Source: Leptothoe kymatousa TAU-MAC 1615 (GTDB lineage Bacteria; Cyanobacteriota; Cyanobacteriia; Phormidesmidales; Phormidesmidaceae). Taken from it: 64,000 nucleotides of DNA. The stretch spans positions 409,282 to 473,281 of the forward strand of contig NZ_JADOER010000004.1 of assembly GCF_018739865.1 (NCBI RefSeq), read 5' to 3'. A program made the translations under genes and the position numbers. Each line of letters starts with the position of its first letter. Positions within the stretch are counted from its first letter, which is position 1. The notes under the pieces were generated by a model. That model saw only the letters and a program-made list of their open reading frames with translations, had not been told where the DNA came from and searched no databases. Shown piece by piece: positions 1 through 21,025 of this stretch.

Positions 1-313
1 GAGGCGAGGGTCTGTCCATCGGGAGAGAAACTCACGCTCCTGACACTCCCCGTATGGCCCTCTAGGGTTTGCAGTTCTCGTCCAGAGCGGTCCCACAGCT
101 TGACGGTGCCATCGTCGCTACCGGAGGCGATGGTCTGGCCATCGGGAGAGAAACTCACGCTCAAGACCCAACCCGTATGGCCCTCTAGGGTTTGCAGTTC
201 TCGGCCTGAGCGGTCCCACAGCTTCACGGTGCCATCGGAGCTACCGGAGGCGATGGTCTGGCCATCGGGAGAGAAACTCACGCTACTGACACTCCCCGTA
301 TGGCCTGGAAAGG
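1..313 (-). repeat. 123-bp tandem repeats encoding WD40 blades
   Basis: Units begin at 1, 124 and 247 (GAGGCGA.GGTCTG.CCATC), a period of 123 bp or 41 codons. The two complete units differ at only a few bases over the full unit, much closer than WD40 blades usually are. This points to recent duplication or gene conversion inside the sensor domain. Confidence 0.9.
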
Positions 314-2492
314 TATTTTTTTCTGGATAGCTAGGCAGATAGTAAGCCTCTCGTAAGCTAGATGTTGCCTGTAGGCCAAGCTCAGAACGAACAGGGTCTT
401 GATAGGGTGAGGTTCCTGCAGGGTTACGAATGTCTTTACCAAGCTCAATGGCATTGAGTAAAGCCTTAAAATTTAGCTTTGATGCAATTAAGTTCTCAAC
501 TGTCAGACTGTCTGCCAGTATCTCTGAGTTAAGAGCTTGCGCTTCTGCTGCGACTGTAGCGGCTTCAGCCCGCAGAGCATTCTCCTGAGAAATTTCAGTC
601 TGCTGGTTAGCAATAACCGTTTGTTCTCTGGCAATACCCGCCTGTCGAGTAGCTTCTGCTTCTCCTTCCTCTGCCCGCTGTAAGGCACCTTCAGCGAGTT
701 GACGCTGCTCCGCCTCGGCTTTTTGTGCTTCTTCAGCCTGTTGTTTTTGCTCCTCAGCTTCTTTTTGTGCTTTATTTGCCCGCTCTTTTTCGGCTAAAGC
801 AATATCTTTTTGGTCCTGTGCCTCAGTTTTTTGCGCCTCCGCTATTTGTGTTTGATCTTCGGCTATTTGCTTCTGGTCTTCGGCTTCCTTTTTCTGTTCA
901 ATGGCAATCTTAGCCTGCTCATCAGCTTTTTGTTGCTGGCTAAAAGCAAATACTGATGCTCCCCCTGTCAACAACGACAGCCCACCCAACAATACCAAAA
1001 ACGTTCTTAACCGATTTATCTCTCGTTTCTTCGCCCGTTCTTTGCTAACCGCTTCCTCTTCCCGAGCATCCGCACTCGCCTGCAAAAAGCCAACGGCCTC
1101 ATCAAAATTCGACGCATACCGCTCAGCCCACACTGCATTCGGCCTCTGTTCCCTTAGCCAGGTCAAACCAATCGTCAATTCTGGATCGCGCCAGTAATTG
1201 GCCTTTCCCTGCTCATACAGCTCCGTTGTCTCCGCCAACCGTCGATAAATATTCGCTGACTGATCTTCCTGATTGACCCAATCCTTAAGCTGCTGCCAGT
1301 TACGCATCAAACTCTCATGGGAAATATCAATCACGCTAGTTTCCGTCAGCCCCACCCCCGCAGGCGGCATCAAAAACGACCGACGCGCTCCCCGAAACGC
1401 ATCAATAACGGCCACCACCTCAGCCACCTCAGCCTCAGCTACTCCACAAAGTTCACCCAACTGCGTCGGCCTACGAATCTCCCGATTATCCGCCCCCCGA
1501 TCCGTCAGCCGCTTAAACAATATTTCCGCAATATATCGCGAGCGATCATTTGGCAGCCCCTTATAAATCTGATCCGCATGGCGCGATAGGGCCGTCGCCA
1601 TGCCACCAATCGCTTCATAATGCTTTACATCAATCGGCGTCTCGGGCGTCCCCAAATCTTCCCAATAGTCCCACGTCCGCATCAACGCATGTTGCAAAAT
1701 CGGCAGCTGGTCCGGGTTATCCCCCACATCATTGAGCAACCGATTAACCAGCTGTGGCGTCATCGTTGCCCCACCCACCGCCACCGGCCCCTCAATCGCC
1801 CGCCGCAGCTGCCCCCGCGTCAGCCGGGGAATTAAATACTGACTGTCATTTAACGCCTCCGGCAAATCCCGAAACTGGGCACAGTCCCCCAAAAAGTCCG
1901 ACCGCATGGTCAGCACCACAAAAATCGGCACCTGCCGCTGCTTCGCCGCCGCCAGCAACAGTTTCACAAACGCCGCCGCCTCATCCTCTGCCGCTAACGA
2001 ATTCGCCTGCTGCTTAAACCGAAAAATCTCCTCAAACTGGTCCACCACCACCAGCAGGTTTTCATGGGCCTCCATCCGCGCCTGCTGGGTCACCTCCACC
2101 AGCCCCAACGCCCCCCGCCGCAGCGTACTCTCCGTCAGGGCTGTACGGATCACCGCATCATCACTGGTGGGCTCCACCCCAAACACCTCGGGGTCATTCA
2201 ACGCCGCTGCCAGATTGCCCATCGGCGCATTCCCCGGTCGCAAAATCGCCACCCGCCACCCCGAGCTAGCATCGGCTAAAAAGCCGCTATATAGCGATGG
2301 CAGCAGCCCCGCCCGCACCAACGACGACTTACCACTGCCGGAGGTGCCCACCACCCCCAAAAATCGGGTGCGATTAAGCCGCACCAGCAGCTCATCCGCC
2401 TGGCCTTCGCGACCAAAAAATAAATGCTCCTCATCCAGCTCAAAGGGGCGCAGTCCTGGAAATGGGTTGGTTCTGGTAGATGCTTGCACCAT
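1..2492 (-). CDS. nSTAND1-type NTPase with coiled coil and WD40 repeats (partial, runs off left edge)
   Basis: Read on the minus strand from ATG at 2492; no stop before base 1, so about 830 N-terminal residues are visible. The order is: leader with NPFPGLRPF and FFGRE (typical of novel STAND NTPases), P-loop GTSGSGKSS, Walker B-like VVVDQFEEIF, a helical region, one membrane-like hydrophobic stretch (about 940-1020), a long Glu/Gln/Ala-rich coiled coil (about 540-935), then WD40 repeats near base 1-330 with SVSFSPDGQTIASGS and VKLWD. Known for the family: STAND proteins oligomerise on ligand binding, the repeats acting as sensor. The start lies 2 bases after the stop of the upstream TIR gene, so the two are almost certainly co-translated. 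A role in antiviral defence or programmed death is inference. The missing C-terminus hides the repeat number. Confidence 0.9.
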   Translation of the reverse strand, partial: MVQASTRTNPFPGLRPFELDEEHLFFGREGQADELLVRLNRTRFLGVVGTSGSGKSSLVRAGLLPSLYSGFLADASSGWRVAILRPGNAPMGNLAAALNDPEVFGVEPTSDDAVIRTALTESTLRRGALGLVEVTQQARMEAHENLLVVVDQFEEIFRFKQQANSLAAEDEAAAFVKLLLAAAKQRQVPIFVVLTMRSDFLGDCAQFRDLPEALNDSQYLIPRLTRGQLRRAIEGPVAVGGATMTPQLVNRLLNDVGDNPDQLPILQHALMRTWDYWEDLGTPETPIDVKHYEAIGGMATALSRHADQIYKGLPNDRSRYIAEILFKRLTDRGADNREIRRPTQLGELCGVAEAEVAEVVAVIDAFRGARRSFLMPPAGVGLTETSVIDISHESLMRNWQQLKDWVNQEDQSANIYRRLAETTELYEQGKANYWRDPELTIGLTWLREQRPNAVWAERYASNFDEAVGFLQASADAREEEAVSKERAKKREINRLRTFLVLLGGLSLLTGGASVFAFSQQQKADEQAKIAIEQKKEAEDQKQIAEDQTQIAEAQKTEAQDQKDIALAEKERANKAQKEAEEQKQQAEEAQKAEAEQRQLAEGALQRAEEGEAEATRQAGIAREQTVIANQQTEISQENALRAEAATVAAEAQALNSEILADSLTVENLIASKLNFKALLNAIELGKDIRNPAGTSPYQDPVRSELGLQATSSLREAYYLPSYPEKNTFPGHTGSVSSVSFSPDGQTIASGSSDGTVKLWDRSGRELQTLEGHTGWVLSVSFSPDGQTIASGSDDGTVKLWDRSGRELQTLEGHTGSVRSVSFSPDGQTLA

Positions 2493-2494
2493 GG

Positions 2495-4081
2495 TTATGC
2501 CCCTCCCATTAGCGGAGCTAAAAACGGCTCCAATAGCCCCGGATTAAATGCCTGCAAACCGTCGATTACTGGCACATCTGACGCTGACAGGCTTTGTTTA
2601 TTGGGCCGTTGCGGACCGGCCAAATATACGGCCTTGGCGACCAGCGGCTGCGGTCGGTCATAGAGGCTTTTGCGCAGGGCATTGAGCCGTCGCTTTAGCC
2701 ACAGACCATTGGCCTGACCGTAGTAAATCAACACCCCCTGGCATTGCTTAATCAACGCCTCCGATTCGCTCAGGTTAGTATTGGCATGGTCCGGCAGCAC
2801 CACCTCCACATTTTGCTCTAGCCACTCATACAGGGGCTCAATCTCCGCCGCATCTAGATCCCGCTGGTCGCAGTCTAGATAAACCCGCCGACCTTCACTC
2901 AGTTGGGCAACCGCCGCAGGCGGCACCAACCGATCTTCGATAATCGTCTTCAAACCCTCCAGGGGCGTACTAATAAACTCTGGCTGCCGCTGCAGCTCTT
3001 GCAAAAAGGTATCCCCTGCCCCGATTTGCACCGACGGCGGCATCCACAAAATCCGGCTAATGTCCTGCTGCTCTTGGCAGCAGTTAGACGCAATTTCTAT
3101 TTGCTCCTGACTGCGAGCGGCTAATAAATTCTGCAATGCGCGACTGGACGGCGATTCATTACCTTGCGCCACCGACTGGGGACTGACCAAATGAATTGAC
3201 ATTACACAGTGGGCCAGGTTTTCTTGCACCCGCTGGGCAAAATCTGGCGTCATGGGCAAGGGCTGCTCTGGCAATACCTGATGCCCTGCCATGGTCAGTT
3301 CCCGTCGAATATTATCCCTGGCATCGTTCAGGTCAAACGTGGTTTCGGCCAGATAGATTGTCTTGCCAGAGATTTCTCGGACATTCGTTTGGGGCTCAGC
3401 AGGATAAGCCAAAAGCGAGTTAATGCCCATTGGTTCGGGATTCCCCTCATATAGCGCGTCTTCAGACAGCGCGTCTAAAGACAGCGTGTCTAAAGACAAA
3501 GCGTCTGAAGACAGGGTGTCTAAGGATAAAGCCTCTAAAATTTCTAGAGTTTGGTGAATGTCATAGGCCAGATCATTCAACCGGGCATAAAACTTACGTT
3601 CCAGCTCCGGGCCATAGATTTTGTCAAATTCCTGGGGGCGTCCGGCGGCATCAAACTCAAAAAACTCATACCCAATAAAGGATTCAAACTCCGCCGGATA
3701 TTGCTCCCTGGGCACATAGGTTTTGACCACCTTAAAGAGCCGCCCCTTATTTTCACCCACGTTGAGGCCGCCGGTTTGCTGGGCGGCATTGGCGCAAAAG
3801 CTCTGTAGCTCCCGGATGCACCATTCCGACTTGATATATCGTGGCGACACAATGGATAGCAACAGCCCAGCATTTTCCAGCGCTTCGGTAATGGCATCGC
3901 CAAAGTAGTCATTACCCTGCAGCTTGGGATCGCGCCAAATCTTTGGCGGCGTGCCGCGAATCTGTGACAAACGAATCGCTAATGCCTTGTGGAACGTAGA
4001 AATCCAGCCCTCTTGGTCAGGGATCAGGGATTGGTTATCGATGTGGGCATAGCTAATGAACAGATCCTTGTCGAAATCCAT
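2495..4081 (-). CDS. TIR-domain protein with two further TIR/DUF4062-like domains
   Basis: 528 residues. Residues 5-175 form a TIR domain: DLFISYAH at the start, and SEWCIREL with E91 where NAD-cleaving TIR enzymes carry their catalytic Glu. Residues 182-211 are a repetitive linker of five-residue units (SLDTL, SSDAL and similar). Residues 240-360 (TIYLAETTFDLNDARDNIRREL ... CVMSIHLVS) resemble the DUF4062/TIR-like fold, and 399-510 (VYLDCDQRDLDAAEIEPL ... GVLIYYGQANGLWLKRRL) look like a third, probably non-catalytic copy. The stop at 2495 is 2 bases before the start of the STAND-WD40 gene. TIR effector plus STAND sensor is a known layout for bacterial conflict systems; the function here is inferred. 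Family assignment of domain 1 is firm, of domains 2 and 3 moderate. Confidence 0.88.
   Translation of the reverse strand: MDFDKDLFISYAHIDNQSLIPDQEGWISTFHKALAIRLSQIRGTPPKIWRDPKLQGNDYFGDAITEALENAGLLLSIVSPRYIKSEWCIRELQSFCANAAQQTGGLNVGENKGRLFKVVKTYVPREQYPAEFESFIGYEFFEFDAAGRPQEFDKIYGPELERKFYARLNDLAYDIHQTLEILEALSLDTLSSDALSLDTLSLDALSEDALYEGNPEPMGINSLLAYPAEPQTNVREISGKTIYLAETTFDLNDARDNIRRELTMAGHQVLPEQPLPMTPDFAQRVQENLAHCVMSIHLVSPQSVAQGNESPSSRALQNLLAARSQEQIEIASNCCQEQQDISRILWMPPSVQIGAGDTFLQELQRQPEFISTPLEGLKTIIEDRLVPPAAVAQLSEGRRVYLDCDQRDLDAAEIEPLYEWLEQNVEVVLPDHANTNLSESEALIKQCQGVLIYYGQANGLWLKRRLNALRKSLYDRPQPLVAKAVYLAGPQRPNKQSLSASDVPVIDGLQAFNPGLLEPFLAPLMGGA
3452..3546 (-). repeat. 15-bp minisatellite in the TIR gene linker
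   Basis: Degenerate units such as GCGTCTAAAGACAGC repeat about six times with 15-bp spacing. They encode the five-residue repeat between the first TIR domain and the TIR-like domains. Unit gain or loss would keep the frame. Confidence 0.75.
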
Positions 4082-4436
4082 CCTGGCGGCGGTTTAGGGG
4101 GCTGTTGACTAGATTAACGAAAGATCGTTGATTAGTCATCAATGGCATCGTATTGCTTAGCAATCGACTGGATGTAGAGGCTGTATATGTAGTATGTGTT
4201 GCGGGGTCGCCTACCCGGCCCTAGTACGCGTTTACTGTTAACCGTGCAAGGACGCTAAACATATACGCTAAACACATACGCTAAAGGGAGGCAGTTGCAT
4301 AACAGCATCCTGTGGGGATTTTATTTTCGTGCGCCCAACCGTCGCTATCTTTGGAACCGTAATATTCGGTCAAACTGGTGCCCAAGGTTAGCATTGGCCC
4401 CATACAATTGGGGGCGCAGTAGATGGGAGACTCAGC
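4082..4436. other. Divergent intergenic region
   Basis: Lies between the minus-strand TIR operon and plus-strand panE and must hold both promoters. No convincing ORF. The only structure seen is the 13-bp direct repeat listed separately. Confidence 0.6.
4252..4286. promoter_or_regulatory. Three 13-bp direct repeats (ACGCTAAA core)
   Basis: The word ACGCTAAA starts at 4252, 4265 and 4278, a regular 13-bp spacing, in the divergent promoter region of the TIR operon and panE. Regular iterons of this size often bind a regulator; none is identifiable here. Confidence 0.4.
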
Positions 4437-18463: not shown

Positions 18464-21025
18464 CTAGCCACCAAAAGCTGCTTGAATCTGTTTACTAACC
18501 TCTACTAAAATTTCCTCTTGGGCTGCGTCGTTTAGTCCTTTCAAAGGCTTGTCTGGATTGCAGGCTGCTTGATAGTTGGCAATATCAGTTTCTGTATACA
18601 TGCTGTGGCCGATGGGTACCCAAATAATTGTTACCCCTTCCTTCTTTACGGCCTCCAATAGTGGTGGCAGCTCATTTTTATAGATAAAATCTGACGCTAA
18701 AAAGTCTTGGCTCACCAGCAACACGGCTACTTTCGTGGTCGCTAGTGCAGTATCGATTTCCTGTCGCCAGTTATCACCGGCTTGGATGCGCCGATCGTCC
18801 CATGTGGTCAGTCGGCCTTCCCGCTCGTAGGTTTTTAGGAACTTTTGCAGCTTGGTGAGCCATTCGCCATCCGCATGGCTGTAGCTAATAAAGACCTTGT
18901 CCCTGGCTGGATAATATTCAACGTGCTGCGCTTTTAGCTGCTCAAACTTATCCTGCTCGGCTTTTTTGTCGAGTTCATCAAAGCGATCCGATAGCACCAC
19001 CGCCGTCAGCCTGCGCACATTCACATCAATGCAGCTTCTGTCGCAGGTGATTTCATAACGGCCCTTTTCCAAATAGCGATCCAGCGTTTTCATCCGAAAG
19101 AAGTGGGGCTGGGTGTTCCCTTGGCATTCTTCACAGATGCAGGGAATCATTTTAGTGACTCGGATTTTTTCAAAGGAGCCGTTGATTTGGTCAATTTCAT
19201 TGGCCACGACGCTCAGCAGCTCTTTGCGGTGCACACCGGATACACGAATGCTAAGTTCCCCCTTGTAGGGGCGATAGTTTTCGATCACTTCTGCCCGGGC
19301 ACGACCGTTGTTGAGCACCACGCCGCTGCGCCATACGATTTGCTGTTGTTCAATCCAGCGATAAAGACGCACAATTAGCTGGGTGGCGATGCCCTTGGGC
19401 ATAAACTCATATTCGTAGCGCAGCATCAGGTTGTTGCTAGGCTCCCAGTCGTAGTCGGGCGGGTCGAAGTCTAGCAGCTGGGGCGAAATATAATTGTCTT
19501 TTAGGCCGGGGATGGGATAGCACAGCTTAAAGTTTTCCATTAGCTGCAGCAGTTCGTCGCCCATGTTGGCATATTGATCGTCATGCCAAATGTCGTCTAG
19601 CTGATCGCGGGTGAACTGGCCTTTGGTTTTGGCGACATCTGGGTTGGTGGTGACGGCATAGACGGCATTGGTGGCCCACTCGGGGCGCAGGATAACAACA
19701 TTTTTTAGCACCCGATCTTTTTGGAAGTGGAGGCAAATGCCCAGCTTGTGGAGAAAGTCGCTGATGCGCAACATTTCGGTGCGCTCCCCAACGCCGTTGC
19801 CCCGGCATAGGGCAAAATAGTCGCTCTGGTCGATGTAGTTGCGGGAGTCGTTTTCCAGGGCGTAGCGGACCAGGGCCCACTTTTGCGGTAATGGCGTGCC
19901 AACAAACTCTAGTTTGGTAATGTAATAGCGGATGGCTTTTTTAATGGCCTCCAGACCACGACCATCGTCCAGATTGGTGGGGATAAACTCTTCAATATAT
20001 TGAAAATCTTGTTTAAGCTGGCGTTCATTAACGTTGCAAGGTCTGTTGCCCTTTTCGTTTTTGATTAGTAGCACCGGGCTATCGCCACCAAATAGCTCAA
20101 TGGAGTTGAGCCAATAGGGGAAGTCGGTATTTTCCTTGCGGGTGTCGGCCACTAGGGCATAGAGGGAACGCTCGGTGAGAAAAAACTGGTGGGTTTGGTG
20201 ATAGATCTCTTGTCCGCCAAAGTCCCATAAATTCACGCGAAATTCCTGGCCATTGTCTAACGGAAATTTCCATTCAATTACCTGAATGCCATGGGTGGAT
20301 TCTTCCTCCGGGTCTAAGTTGTAGTTAGGATCTTGAATCTTTTTAGCCAGGGAGGTTTTGCCAGCACCCCCTTCTCCCACGATTAGAAACTTAGCTTCTT
20401 GCAAAAAGAAATCTTCTGTTGCTTTAGACGTATCCTCATAAAAATCGATGATAGTTTTGAGGTTTTCATTATCCAGCCATGACGTTTCATCCCCTAAAAG
20501 TTCTGGAGGAATTGGGAGAGGATTACCACTTAACCCAATTTCCTCAAGAGGTAACCACTTCAGCACTAGAGGCAGCTTAGAAAACTTATTTTTATCTAAC
20601 GCAAGAGTATTTAAGTCTCTAAGTTGTTTTATTTCTGAAGGCAGTTCACTGAGCTGGTTATTGCGGAGGTCAAGGGACGTGAGACTGGTTAGCTGTCCAA
20701 TTTGTGGAGGCAGTTCACTGAGCTGGTTAAAGCTGAGGTAAAGGGACGTGAGACTGGTTAGCTGTCCAATTTGTGGAGGCAGTTCACTGAGCTGGTTAAA
20801 GCTGAGGTAAAGGGACGTGAGACTGGTTAGCTGTCCAATTTGTGGAGGCAGTTCACTGAGCTGGTTATTGCTGAGGTCAAGGGACGTGAGACTGGTTAGC
20901 TGTCCAATTTGTGGAGGCAGCTCCGTCAGCTCATTCCCCGACAAATCCAACTCCGTCGCCCCAGTTCTGGCCGCTTCCCCAATCACCTCCAACAGCTCAT
21001 CCCGCGTCATCCCAGCCATCTCCAA
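18464..21025 (-). CDS. Roco protein: LRR-Roc-COR-TIR
   Basis: 853 residues. Residues 23-190 are leucine-rich repeats of 23 residues (LTELPPQIGQLTSLTSLDLS). Roc GTPase begins near 210: P-loop GEGGAGKT (217-224), STHGIQ switch, WDFGGQEIYHQ (D268-Q272), and LIKNEKG in place of NKxD. COR follows. Around residue 650, CICEECQGNTQPHF could be a zinc-binding turn. Residues 710-853 are a TIR domain (KVFISYSHADGEW; SDFIYKNELPPLL with E785 at the catalytic Glu position). Roco proteins are dimeric GTP switches; a TIR end suggests a signal-triggered NADase or a scaffold. Single gene, ATG 21025 (MEMAGMTRDELLEVI), bordered by mobile repeats at the 3' end. A defence or cell-death role is inference. Confidence 0.93.
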   Translation of the reverse strand: MEMAGMTRDELLEVIGEAARTGATELDLSGNELTELPPQIGQLTSLTSLDLSNNQLSELPPQIGQLTSLTSLYLSFNQLSELPPQIGQLTSLTSLYLSFNQLSELPPQIGQLTSLTSLDLRNNQLSELPSEIKQLRDLNTLALDKNKFSKLPLVLKWLPLEEIGLSGNPLPIPPELLGDETSWLDNENLKTIIDFYEDTSKATEDFFLQEAKFLIVGEGGAGKTSLAKKIQDPNYNLDPEEESTHGIQVIEWKFPLDNGQEFRVNLWDFGGQEIYHQTHQFFLTERSLYALVADTRKENTDFPYWLNSIELFGGDSPVLLIKNEKGNRPCNVNERQLKQDFQYIEEFIPTNLDDGRGLEAIKKAIRYYITKLEFVGTPLPQKWALVRYALENDSRNYIDQSDYFALCRGNGVGERTEMLRISDFLHKLGICLHFQKDRVLKNVVILRPEWATNAVYAVTTNPDVAKTKGQFTRDQLDDIWHDDQYANMGDELLQLMENFKLCYPIPGLKDNYISPQLLDFDPPDYDWEPSNNLMLRYEYEFMPKGIATQLIVRLYRWIEQQQIVWRSGVVLNNGRARAEVIENYRPYKGELSIRVSGVHRKELLSVVANEIDQINGSFEKIRVTKMIPCICEECQGNTQPHFFRMKTLDRYLEKGRYEITCDRSCIDVNVRRLTAVVLSDRFDELDKKAEQDKFEQLKAQHVEYYPARDKVFISYSHADGEWLTKLQKFLKTYEREGRLTTWDDRRIQAGDNWRQEIDTALATTKVAVLLVSQDFLASDFIYKNELPPLLEAVKKEGVTIIWVPIGHSMYTETDIANYQAACNPDKPLKGLNDAAQEEILVEVSKQIQAAFGG
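20641..20930 (-). repeat. 69-bp near-identical tandem repeats coding for LRRs
   Basis: GCAGTTCACTGAGCTGGTTA occurs at 20641, 20710, 20779 and 20848, exactly 69 bp apart (23 codons). The middle units are identical or differ by a few bases, including at silent positions. This indicates recent expansion and possible length variation between strains. Confidence 0.9.

What the first reader, a model, noticed from the sequence alone, without database searches (positions are those of the whole stretch)
1..4081. TIR / nSTAND1-WD40 operon as a candidate defence system
A TIR protein with three TIR-like modules is separated by 2 bp from a STAND NTPase with coiled coil and WD40 sensor. The TIR gene keeps the catalytic Glu (E91 in SEWCIREL). 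TIR plus STAND pairs are known in bacterial immunity; this domain order (catalytic TIR, pentad linker, two non-catalytic TIR-like copies) is less common. Role is inference.
Basis: partly seen in the sequence, partly recalled or inferred. Interest (0 to 1): 0.75.

Follow-up and report, generated by a model that had tools for sequence, protein, structure and literature searches.

The report
TIR–STAND pair with swappable sensors
Two bacterial genes that travel together look like an immune alarm: one carries an intact TIR (NAD-cutting type) domain, the other is a probably membrane-bound switch whose sensor end differs between relatives, which suggests a recognition and cell-suicide system, although its role has not been tested.

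Summary
A 528-aa TIR protein (window 2495-4081, minus) lies 2 nt upstream of an nSTAND1-coiled coil-WD40 gene that runs out of the window at base 1, where a 55-N assembly gap breaks a 123-bp WD40 repeat array. I collected 16 loci with the same TIR + two-module protein (one cut short). The predicted catalytic Glu (E91) is present in 16 of 16. An nSTAND1 gene follows directly (8-nt overlap to 13-nt gap) in 14 of 16; of the other two, one is cut by a contig end and one lies in a MoxR-type operon beside type I R-M genes. In 4 of 4 genomes tested, the partner STAND outscores every other STAND of the window's own genome. The pair is rare and patchy, and an empty site exists in one same-genus genome. 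Partner C-termini differ (WD40, TPR-like, Band_7, TIR, TIR+CHASE2), once at an orthologous locus. Module 2 is DUF4062-like without a conserved Glu. In three Proteobacterial MAGs a tail-sheath gene follows the pair. Best reading: a membrane-anchored NLR-like receptor that licenses a TIR NADase in trans, for abortive defence. NADase activity, defence and trigger are untested. A new variant of a known kind.

The parts
2495..4081 (-). Effector gene, 528 aa: TIR domain (about residues 1-182), variable linker, DUF4062-like module 2 (about 240-397), alpha/beta (possibly TIR-like) module 3 (about 398-528)
3809..3811 (-). Codon of E91, the predicted catalytic Glu (W87-C-x-x-E91); invariant in 16 of 16 rows
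   Evidence: position computed from the ORF start at 4081
3453..3523 (-). Linker tandem repeat (15-bp period, 4.7 copies), only in the window's row of the 6-row alignment
   Evidence: L009:17735-17805
1..2492 (-). Receptor gene (cut by the window edge): nSTAND1 NTPase (residues 10-430), TM-like helix (499-517), coiled coil, first WD40 repeats; continues outside the window to L009:13579
1..305 (-). In-window part of the 123-bp WD40 repeat array; a 55-N assembly gap lies directly outside base 1
1..4435 (.). In-window part of the segment absent from same-genus genome G793, where the flanking homologous blocks are 409 bp apart (here 5,340 bp); exact ends not resolved

Best explanation
The two genes form one unit. 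The second encodes an NLR-like receptor: a cytosolic nSTAND1 switch, a membrane-spanning helix, a coiled coil and an exchangeable C-terminal sensor (here WD40 repeats). When the sensor meets its trigger the NTPase oligomerises, gathers the TIR protein through its C-terminal modules, brings TIR domains together and switches on NAD+ cleavage, killing or halting the infected cell. Shown here: gene unit, domain order, invariant Glu, co-inheritance, absence of the segment from a relative's site, different sensor ends. Inferred: NADase activity, membrane insertion, oligomerisation, recruitment by modules 2 and 3, the trigger, and the antiphage purpose.
For: E91 16/16 while residue 86 varies. Pairing 14/16 with tight spacing. 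Partner STANDs of 4 of 4 genomes tested (49% identity even in Proteobacteria, 481 bits) outscore every other STAND of the own genome (best 166 bits, 32%). Empty site in one same-genus genome; 8 of 59 relatives (own included) and 0 of 7 other same-genus genomes carry it. At one orthologous locus in two same-genus genomes the TIR is 90% identical but the STAND ends in WD40 in one and Band_7 in the other. WD40 repeats vary most at positions matching those selected in fungal HET-D/HET-E receptors (PMC1805685 passages). The same effector cassette sits in a MoxR-type operon beside type I R-M genes.
Against: No defence island at the window locus: of 10 neighbour proteins scanned (8 from the window genome, 2 from G170) only an NYN protein, an LRR-Roc-COR-TIR about 14 kb away and a GmrSD-type protein near the G170 pair matched PADLOC models. 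No biochemical evidence. Fold models are of modest confidence (pLDDT 72 and 68). In three MAGs a tail-sheath gene follows the pair, which could mean another role. No relatives in the phage, plasmid or viral-contig searches. In G170 and G491 pN does not clearly exceed pS at the variable WD40 positions.
Confidence: 0.62

Rival explanations
1. Stress- or development-triggered cell death or signalling rather than antiphage defence: the membrane STAND senses an envelope or cell-state cue and the TIR lowers NAD+ or makes a signal molecule.
For: TM-like helix in 11 of 12 partners read past the NTPase; CHASE2 (recalled as an extracytoplasmic sensor domain) and Band_7 variants; no defence island at the window locus.
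Against: Patchy presence, different sensor ends at one locus and focused WD40 variation point to a changing external trigger.
Confidence: 0.2
2. A trigger or regulator tied to contractile injection systems: the pair controls firing of, or responds to, such machines.
For: In 3 of 3 Proteobacterial MAG loci a tail-sheath gene starts about 130 nt after the STAND stop, same strand; Baseplate_J follows in the one locus read further (G386). G389 and G491 also hold sheath genes, but on other contigs or 257 kb and more away.
Against: One lineage only; the upstream gene overlapping the pair there is a formyltransferase; no sheath gene found in the own genome (75% complete) or in G170 (99% complete). 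Whether the tail genes are an injection system or a prophage remnant was not settled.
Confidence: 0.08
3. The TIR is only a scaffold (non-enzymatic) that passes the STAND signal on to other TIR proteins of the genome.
For: The own genome holds 26 matches to TIR_2; modules 2 and 3 lack a conserved Glu.
Against: E91 and W87 are invariant in 16 of 16, and the TIR part is the most conserved part of the protein in both comparisons made.
Confidence: 0.1

Closest known systems
Swarozyc / DUF4062 TIR-like NADases and TEP1 (PMC13174449, parts 1 and 2 of 6 of the text read)
   Same: A DUF4062-like module; in human TEP1/NWD1 DUF4062 stands next to a NACHT, and several of these proteins have WD40, the same ingredients
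   Different: Here a separate canonical TIR carries the Glu, the DUF4062-like module has no conserved Glu at that place, and the STAND is a second gene
TIR-NLR of P4-like satellites (PMC9122126, six passages read)
   Same: Named as TIR with an NLR; shown there to protect E. coli against phages
   Different: Two genes here, nSTAND1 with a TM-like helix and differing sensors; the architecture of that system was not in the passages I read
Fungal NACHT-WD40 receptors HET-D/HET-E (PMC1805685 and PMC12222747, passages read)
   Same: Near-identical WD40 repeats varying most at the matching positions; short-read assemblies break in the array
   Different: nSTAND1 not NACHT, TM-like helix, TIR effector in a second gene, bacterial host
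MoxR-vWA ternary conflict systems (PMC7159879, passages read)
   Same: One relative of the effector cassette (G830:C22, L083) is in an operon whose ATPase matches Pfam bpMoxR (41.6 bits, cut-off 27)
   Different: The window pair's immediate neighbours are panE and an unassigned 350-aa gene
FxsC TIR-like proteins (NCBIfam NF040588)
   Same: Best NCBIfam match of the TIR part, 49.6 bits
   Different: Far below the family cut-off of 130

Membership tests
Catalytic TIR (NADase-type) | TIR domain with Glu at W+4 of the WxxxE region | tested here: met
   TIR_2 over cut-off; E91 and W87 in 16 of 16; plant RPP1 and RUN1 are top fold matches
Catalytic TIR (NADase-type) | NAD+ cleavage | not testable with these tools
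   needs enzyme assay
nSTAND1 NTPase receptor | nSTAND1 domain with P-loop and C-terminal sensor | tested here: met
   343 bits; GTSGSGKSS P-loop in the translation; WD40
Swarozyc | DUF4062 domain itself carries the catalytic Glu | tested here: not met
   module 2 has no conserved Glu at the alphaC place in the 16-row alignment, judged by eye
Swarozyc | C-terminal auxiliary portal-binding domain | tested here: inconclusive
   none reported by Pfam, but no model of that domain was searched
Thoeris | clear ThsB match plus a ThsA partner | tested here: not met
   ThsB only 14.7 bits, E 0.003; partner is nSTAND1-WD40, and no ThsA among the neighbours scanned
FxsC system | FxsC_Nterm over its cut-off | tested here: not met
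   49.6 against 130 bits
TIR-NLR (P4 satellites) | sequence kinship with the published system | not tested
   published sequence not compared
High-internal-conservation WD40 receptors (HET-D/E like) | repeats highly alike and variation focused on the positions selected in fungi | tested here: met
   array 90-93% matches, mean 90% nt identity of 5 repeat cores; 33 of 31,465 position sets as extreme
High-internal-conservation WD40 receptors (HET-D/E like) | positive selection at these positions | tested here: inconclusive
   pN/pS 0.426/0.022 in the window (5 repeats) but 0.368/0.352 in G170 and 0.558/0.649 in G491
MoxR-vWA ternary system | MoxR and vWA genes in the operon | tested here: not met
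   immediate neighbours of the window pair are panE and an unassigned gene; a MoxR gene is present at L083 only, where the vWA label is my guess and no Pfam hit supports it
Defence island member | known defence genes as neighbours | tested here: not met
   window locus: mostly housekeeping neighbours among those scanned; type I R-M genes do lie beside L083

The most novel reading that the evidence does not exclude
A transmembrane bacterial NLR: the nSTAND1 switch and the TIR effector are cytosolic while the coiled coil and WD40 sensor lie outside the cytoplasm, so the cell reads an extracytoplasmic trigger (phage attachment or injection, a rival's injection machine, envelope damage) and answers with TIR-driven NAD+ loss. 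Support: a TM-like helix in 11 of 12 partners, net positive charge on its N side in 11 of 11; in 7 of 7 WD40 partners exactly two Cys follow the helix, both in the C-terminal tail, as for a disulfide outside the cytoplasm (three are near copies, and the window's array has an unread gap); one partner carries CHASE2 from its first helix on. Against: in G818 and G806:C395 a TIR domain lies before the helix; G805 has two adjacent helices, which would bring Band_7 back inside; the TPR-like partner has five Cys after the helix. The sensor end differs between two genomes at one orthologous locus.
Probability: 0.4. Interest if true: 0.82.

Novelty: new variant of a known kind. Interest (0 to 1): 0.64.

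Why it matters
If right, bacteria have a split, membrane-anchored NLR-TIR system whose sensor is replaced at a fixed chromosomal site while switch and effector stay. That gives a direct experimental handle on how NLR-type receptors gain new specificities, and it joins TIR, DUF4062-like, STAND and WD40 parts, ingredients of TEP1/NWD1-like animal proteins, in one two-gene unit. It also shows one effector cassette found with both a STAND and a MoxR-type switch.

Tried and rejected
Rejected: (a) a gene that ends at the window edge: it continues past an assembly gap. (b) A phage- or plasmid-borne pair: no match in phages, plasmids or viral contigs. (c) Direct filing under Thoeris, Swarozyc or FxsC: defining features not met. 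(d) A general tie to contractile injection systems: no sheath gene found in the own genome or in G170. (e) E86 as catalytic residue: it varies. (f) Terminal repeats as a mark of the mover: none that I recognised around the insert; in G491 two alike transposase-like ORFs flank the locus, recognised by eye only.

Led nowhere: promoter scan (0 found); neighbour-gene search in G812 and G816 for an empty site at the G170 locus (neighbour absent); paper search for FxsC with TIR (0 papers). A paper search for 'nSTAND1' gave 2 papers, both looked at by passages. One for contractile injection system + TIR domain + STAND gave 2, neither opened. My statement that I saw no report of this pair rests only; the listings were capped (15 of 22, 20 of 27, 15 of 47, 25 of 255 papers shown).

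Dropped before counts: G417 (a 65-position TIR match in a 262-aa frame), G389:C168 (30 positions) and the other weak TIR matches. L011 lies in G389; G797 was treated as the same genome because contig numbers and coordinates agree (inferred). In the searches only the first few candidates per genome were scored, so 2 of 386, 2 of 398, 2 of 386 and 3 of 299 (query genomes included) are lower bounds. WD40 analysis: only repeats fitting a strict pattern were used, 5 of 6 GH-anchored repeats in the window gene (the sixth is cut by the gap), 9 of 12 in G170, 6 of 8 in G491 (list). In one search I first looked at the variation with positions chosen partly by eye and recall; the four positions come from the published codons 7, 9, 25, 27, mapped by me through the conserved residues 8 and 26; repeats are not independent. 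Of six same-genus stretches fetched for the empty site, one is empty (G793), one holds other ORFs (G789) and four did not show both flanks (G787, G788, G790, G791); G792 was not fetched. That the G805 STAND end is an assembly join was not excluded.

Full report
What is there. The window is G000:C4:409282-473281. On its minus strand lies a 528-aa ORF (2495-4081), followed after 2 nt by an ORF that starts at 2492 and runs out at base 1. The neighbouring stretch of the same contig (L009) shows that the second gene continues: 55 N begin just outside the window, then more WD40 repeats and a C-terminal tail end at L009:13579. The array has a 123-bp unit, 90-93% matches, so the gap is most simply a repeat the assembler could not span; a paper on fungal receptors reports the same problem (PMC12222747, passages). 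Repeat number and true length are therefore unknown.

Domains. The TIR protein matches TIR_2 over cut-off (residues 8-99); the STAND matches nSTAND1 (343 bits) and WD40. The second module of the TIR protein is DUF4062-like: below cut-off in the window protein, but 7 of 7 C-terminal halves match at a permissive E<=5 (best 2.5e-4), 4 of 7 also match TIR_2, and in one relative DUF4062 passes its cut-off (25.2 against 24.7 bits). DUF4062 was recently described as a TIR-like NADase family (PMC13174449, first two of six parts read). AlphaFold models show three alpha/beta modules (pLDDT 72.3, pTM 0.40; C-terminal half 67.9, pTM 0.45). Best fold matches of the whole protein are plant NLRs RPP1 and RUN1. 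The C-terminal half matches TIRs such as RRS1 and SARM1 but also general Rossmann-like and Ras folds, so the TIR kinship of module 3 is not settled.

Relatives. From one genome-contig scan (4 loci), searches of 386 cyanobacterial genomes (2 of 386 each, own included), of 398 and 299 genomes of the phylum of the Proteobacterial hits (2 of 398; 3 of 299, one a short match that I dropped) and of 59 close relatives (8 of 59, own included), I collected 16 loci with the TIR + module 2 + module 3 protein (one truncated). E91 and W87 are present in 16 of 16, while the Glu of SEWC (residue 86) is K, D, T or P in some. Modules 2 and 3 show no conserved Glu at the matching place, judged by eye. The TIR domain is under purifying selection (pN 0.116 against pS 0.669 to L011; 0.197 against 0.793 to G170); module 2 is looser.

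The pair is real. In 14 of 16 loci an nSTAND1 gene follows directly on the same strand, with a spacing from an 8-nt overlap to 13 nt (two are cut later by contig ends). nSTAND1 was scored by Pfam in the window, G386, G446, G805, G818 and both G806 loci and recognised by similarity in the rest. In G446 the gene directly behind is a half-length nSTAND1, followed by a full one. The two exceptions are a contig-end truncation (L045) and G830:C22 (L083), where the cassette is the C-terminal part of a 685-aa protein in an operon with an ATPase matching bpMoxR and two further genes that I could not assign; type I restriction-modification genes lie next door. In the 4 genomes tested the partner STAND is nearest to the window's STAND: 78% (G170, 836 bits), 49% (G386, 481 bits), 36% (G491, 230 bits), 85% over 114 residues (G389, partial, 208 bits). 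The best-scoring other STAND of its own genome has 166 bits and 32%; others there reach 34% over shorter stretches. The genes have thus been inherited together.

A moving unit. Of 7 other same-genus genomes none has the TIR gene. In G793 the homologous blocks that flank the pair here are 409 bp apart instead of 5,340 bp (L098): an empty site. In G789 the same interval holds other ORFs (L096). Four further genomes did not show both flanks in the stretch fetched, and one was not fetched. The insert has 54.5% G+C against 50-51% around it. I recognised no terminal repeats that would name a mover. In G491 two alike transposase-like ORFs flank the locus (by eye).

Different sensors. Among 12 partners read past the NTPase (the window's with its gap) the C-terminal part is WD40 in 7 (Pfam in the window and G386; repeat pattern or likeness in G170, G830:C31, G387, G388, G491), TPR-like in G446 (Pfam scores below the cut-offs), Band_7 in G805, TIR in G818, TIR plus CHASE2 in G806:C395, and unrecognised in G806:C38. 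G170 and G805 carry the pair at the same place: flanks are 76-87% identical in DNA, the TIR proteins 90% in amino acids, and the STAND mostly 87-97% up to about residue 300 (one 30-residue block at 50%); it then falls to 20-68%, and the C-termini are WD40 in one and Band_7 in the other. The simplest reading is that the sensor end was replaced while effector and switch stayed; a false join in the G805 assembly was not excluded.

WD40 variation. In fungal HET-D/HET-E, codons 7, 9, 25 and 27 of the repeat are under positive selection and lie around conserved positions 8 and 26 (PMC1805685, passages). Mapped to my numbering (5, 7, 23, 25), these carry 4.15 of 6.8 non-synonymous differences per repeat pair in the window (5 repeats), a value reached by 33 of 31,465 sets of four positions; G170 (9 repeats) 9 of 31,465; G491 (6 repeats) 32 of 31,465. 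In the window pN/pS is 0.426/0.022 there and 0.043/0.131 elsewhere. In G170 (0.368/0.352) and G491 (0.558/0.649) pN does not clearly exceed pS, so this supports focused variation, not proven positive selection.

Membrane. A hydrophobic helix (Kyte-Doolittle 1.6 or more over 19 residues) lies behind the NTPase in 11 of 12 partners, with net positive charge on its N side in 11 of 11; G806:C38 has none. In G818 and G806:C395 a TIR domain lies between NTPase and helix, and G805 has two adjacent helices. Such helices also occur in 8 of the 11 other nSTAND1 proteins that could be read of 14 tried, so the feature belongs to the family rather than to the pair. In 7 of 7 WD40 partners exactly two Cys follow the helix, both in the last tail; the three Proteobacterial ones are near copies and the window's array has an unread gap. 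The TPR-like partner has five Cys there, against a general rule.

Surroundings. Window neighbours scanned are housekeeping genes (panE, a Na/alanine symporter) plus a NYN gene and, 14 kb away, an LRR-Roc-COR-TIR gene: no defence island. In three Proteobacterial MAGs a tail-sheath gene begins about 130 nt after the STAND, and in the one read further (G386) Baseplate_J follows; a formyltransferase gene overlaps the TIR gene upstream there. I did not search for capsid or portal genes, so injection system and prophage remnant are not told apart. No sheath was found in the own genome (75% complete) or G170; G389 and G491 have sheath genes elsewhere.

Mechanism. Most likely, trigger binding by the sensor leads to nSTAND1 oligomerisation; the TIR protein is gathered, perhaps through modules 2 and 3; clustered TIR domains cut NAD+; the cell stops. 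Only the genes, residues and evolutionary pattern are shown; all steps of action are inferred from named families (TIR NADases, STAND switches). Rivals are a stress or death switch not aimed at phages, a link to injection systems, and a non-enzymatic TIR scaffold.

Novelty. TIR + NLR defence is known (PMC9122126 passages). New here, as far as the searches listed reach, are the split two-gene form with a TM-like helix, the DUF4062-like module behind a canonical TIR, the different sensor ends at one locus, and one effector cassette shared with a MoxR-type operon.

On the second reading I corrected: TPR in G446 (below cut-off), flank identity (76-87%), the identity of other own STANDs (up to 34%), the linker and insert coordinates, Baseplate_J (one locus only), the formyltransferase upstream, and the helix positions in G818, G806:C395 and G805.

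Noticed in passing
window 18464-21025 (-): LRR-Roc-COR-TIR protein of 853 aa, a second TIR gene about 14 kb from the pair (Pfam).
   Followed up: partly
G000 whole genome: 26 matches to TIR_2 in a 75%-complete genome, several in large multi-TIR frames of 1100-1500 aa.
   Followed up: no
L012/L013/L014 about 13223 onward; L027: Tail-sheath gene directly behind the TIR-STAND pair in three Proteobacterial MAGs; Baseplate_J and a Peptidase_S74 protein follow in the one read further.
   Followed up: partly
L083 617-15585: bpMoxR-type operon with the same TIR cassette beside type I R-M genes.
   Followed up: partly
L079 5608-9180: nSTAND1-TIR-CHASE2 protein, with a separate WD40-like ORF after it.
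   Followed up: partly
L070 8006-8884: Half-length nSTAND1 gene between TIR and full nSTAND1 genes in G446.
   Followed up: no
L034 3633-4844 and 14667-15878: Two alike transposase-like ORFs flanking the pair in G491, composite-transposon-like (by eye).
   Followed up: no
L096 1479-3709: Different ORFs (one glycosyltransferase-like, by eye) in the interval that holds the pair in the window genome: a variable site.
   Followed up: partly
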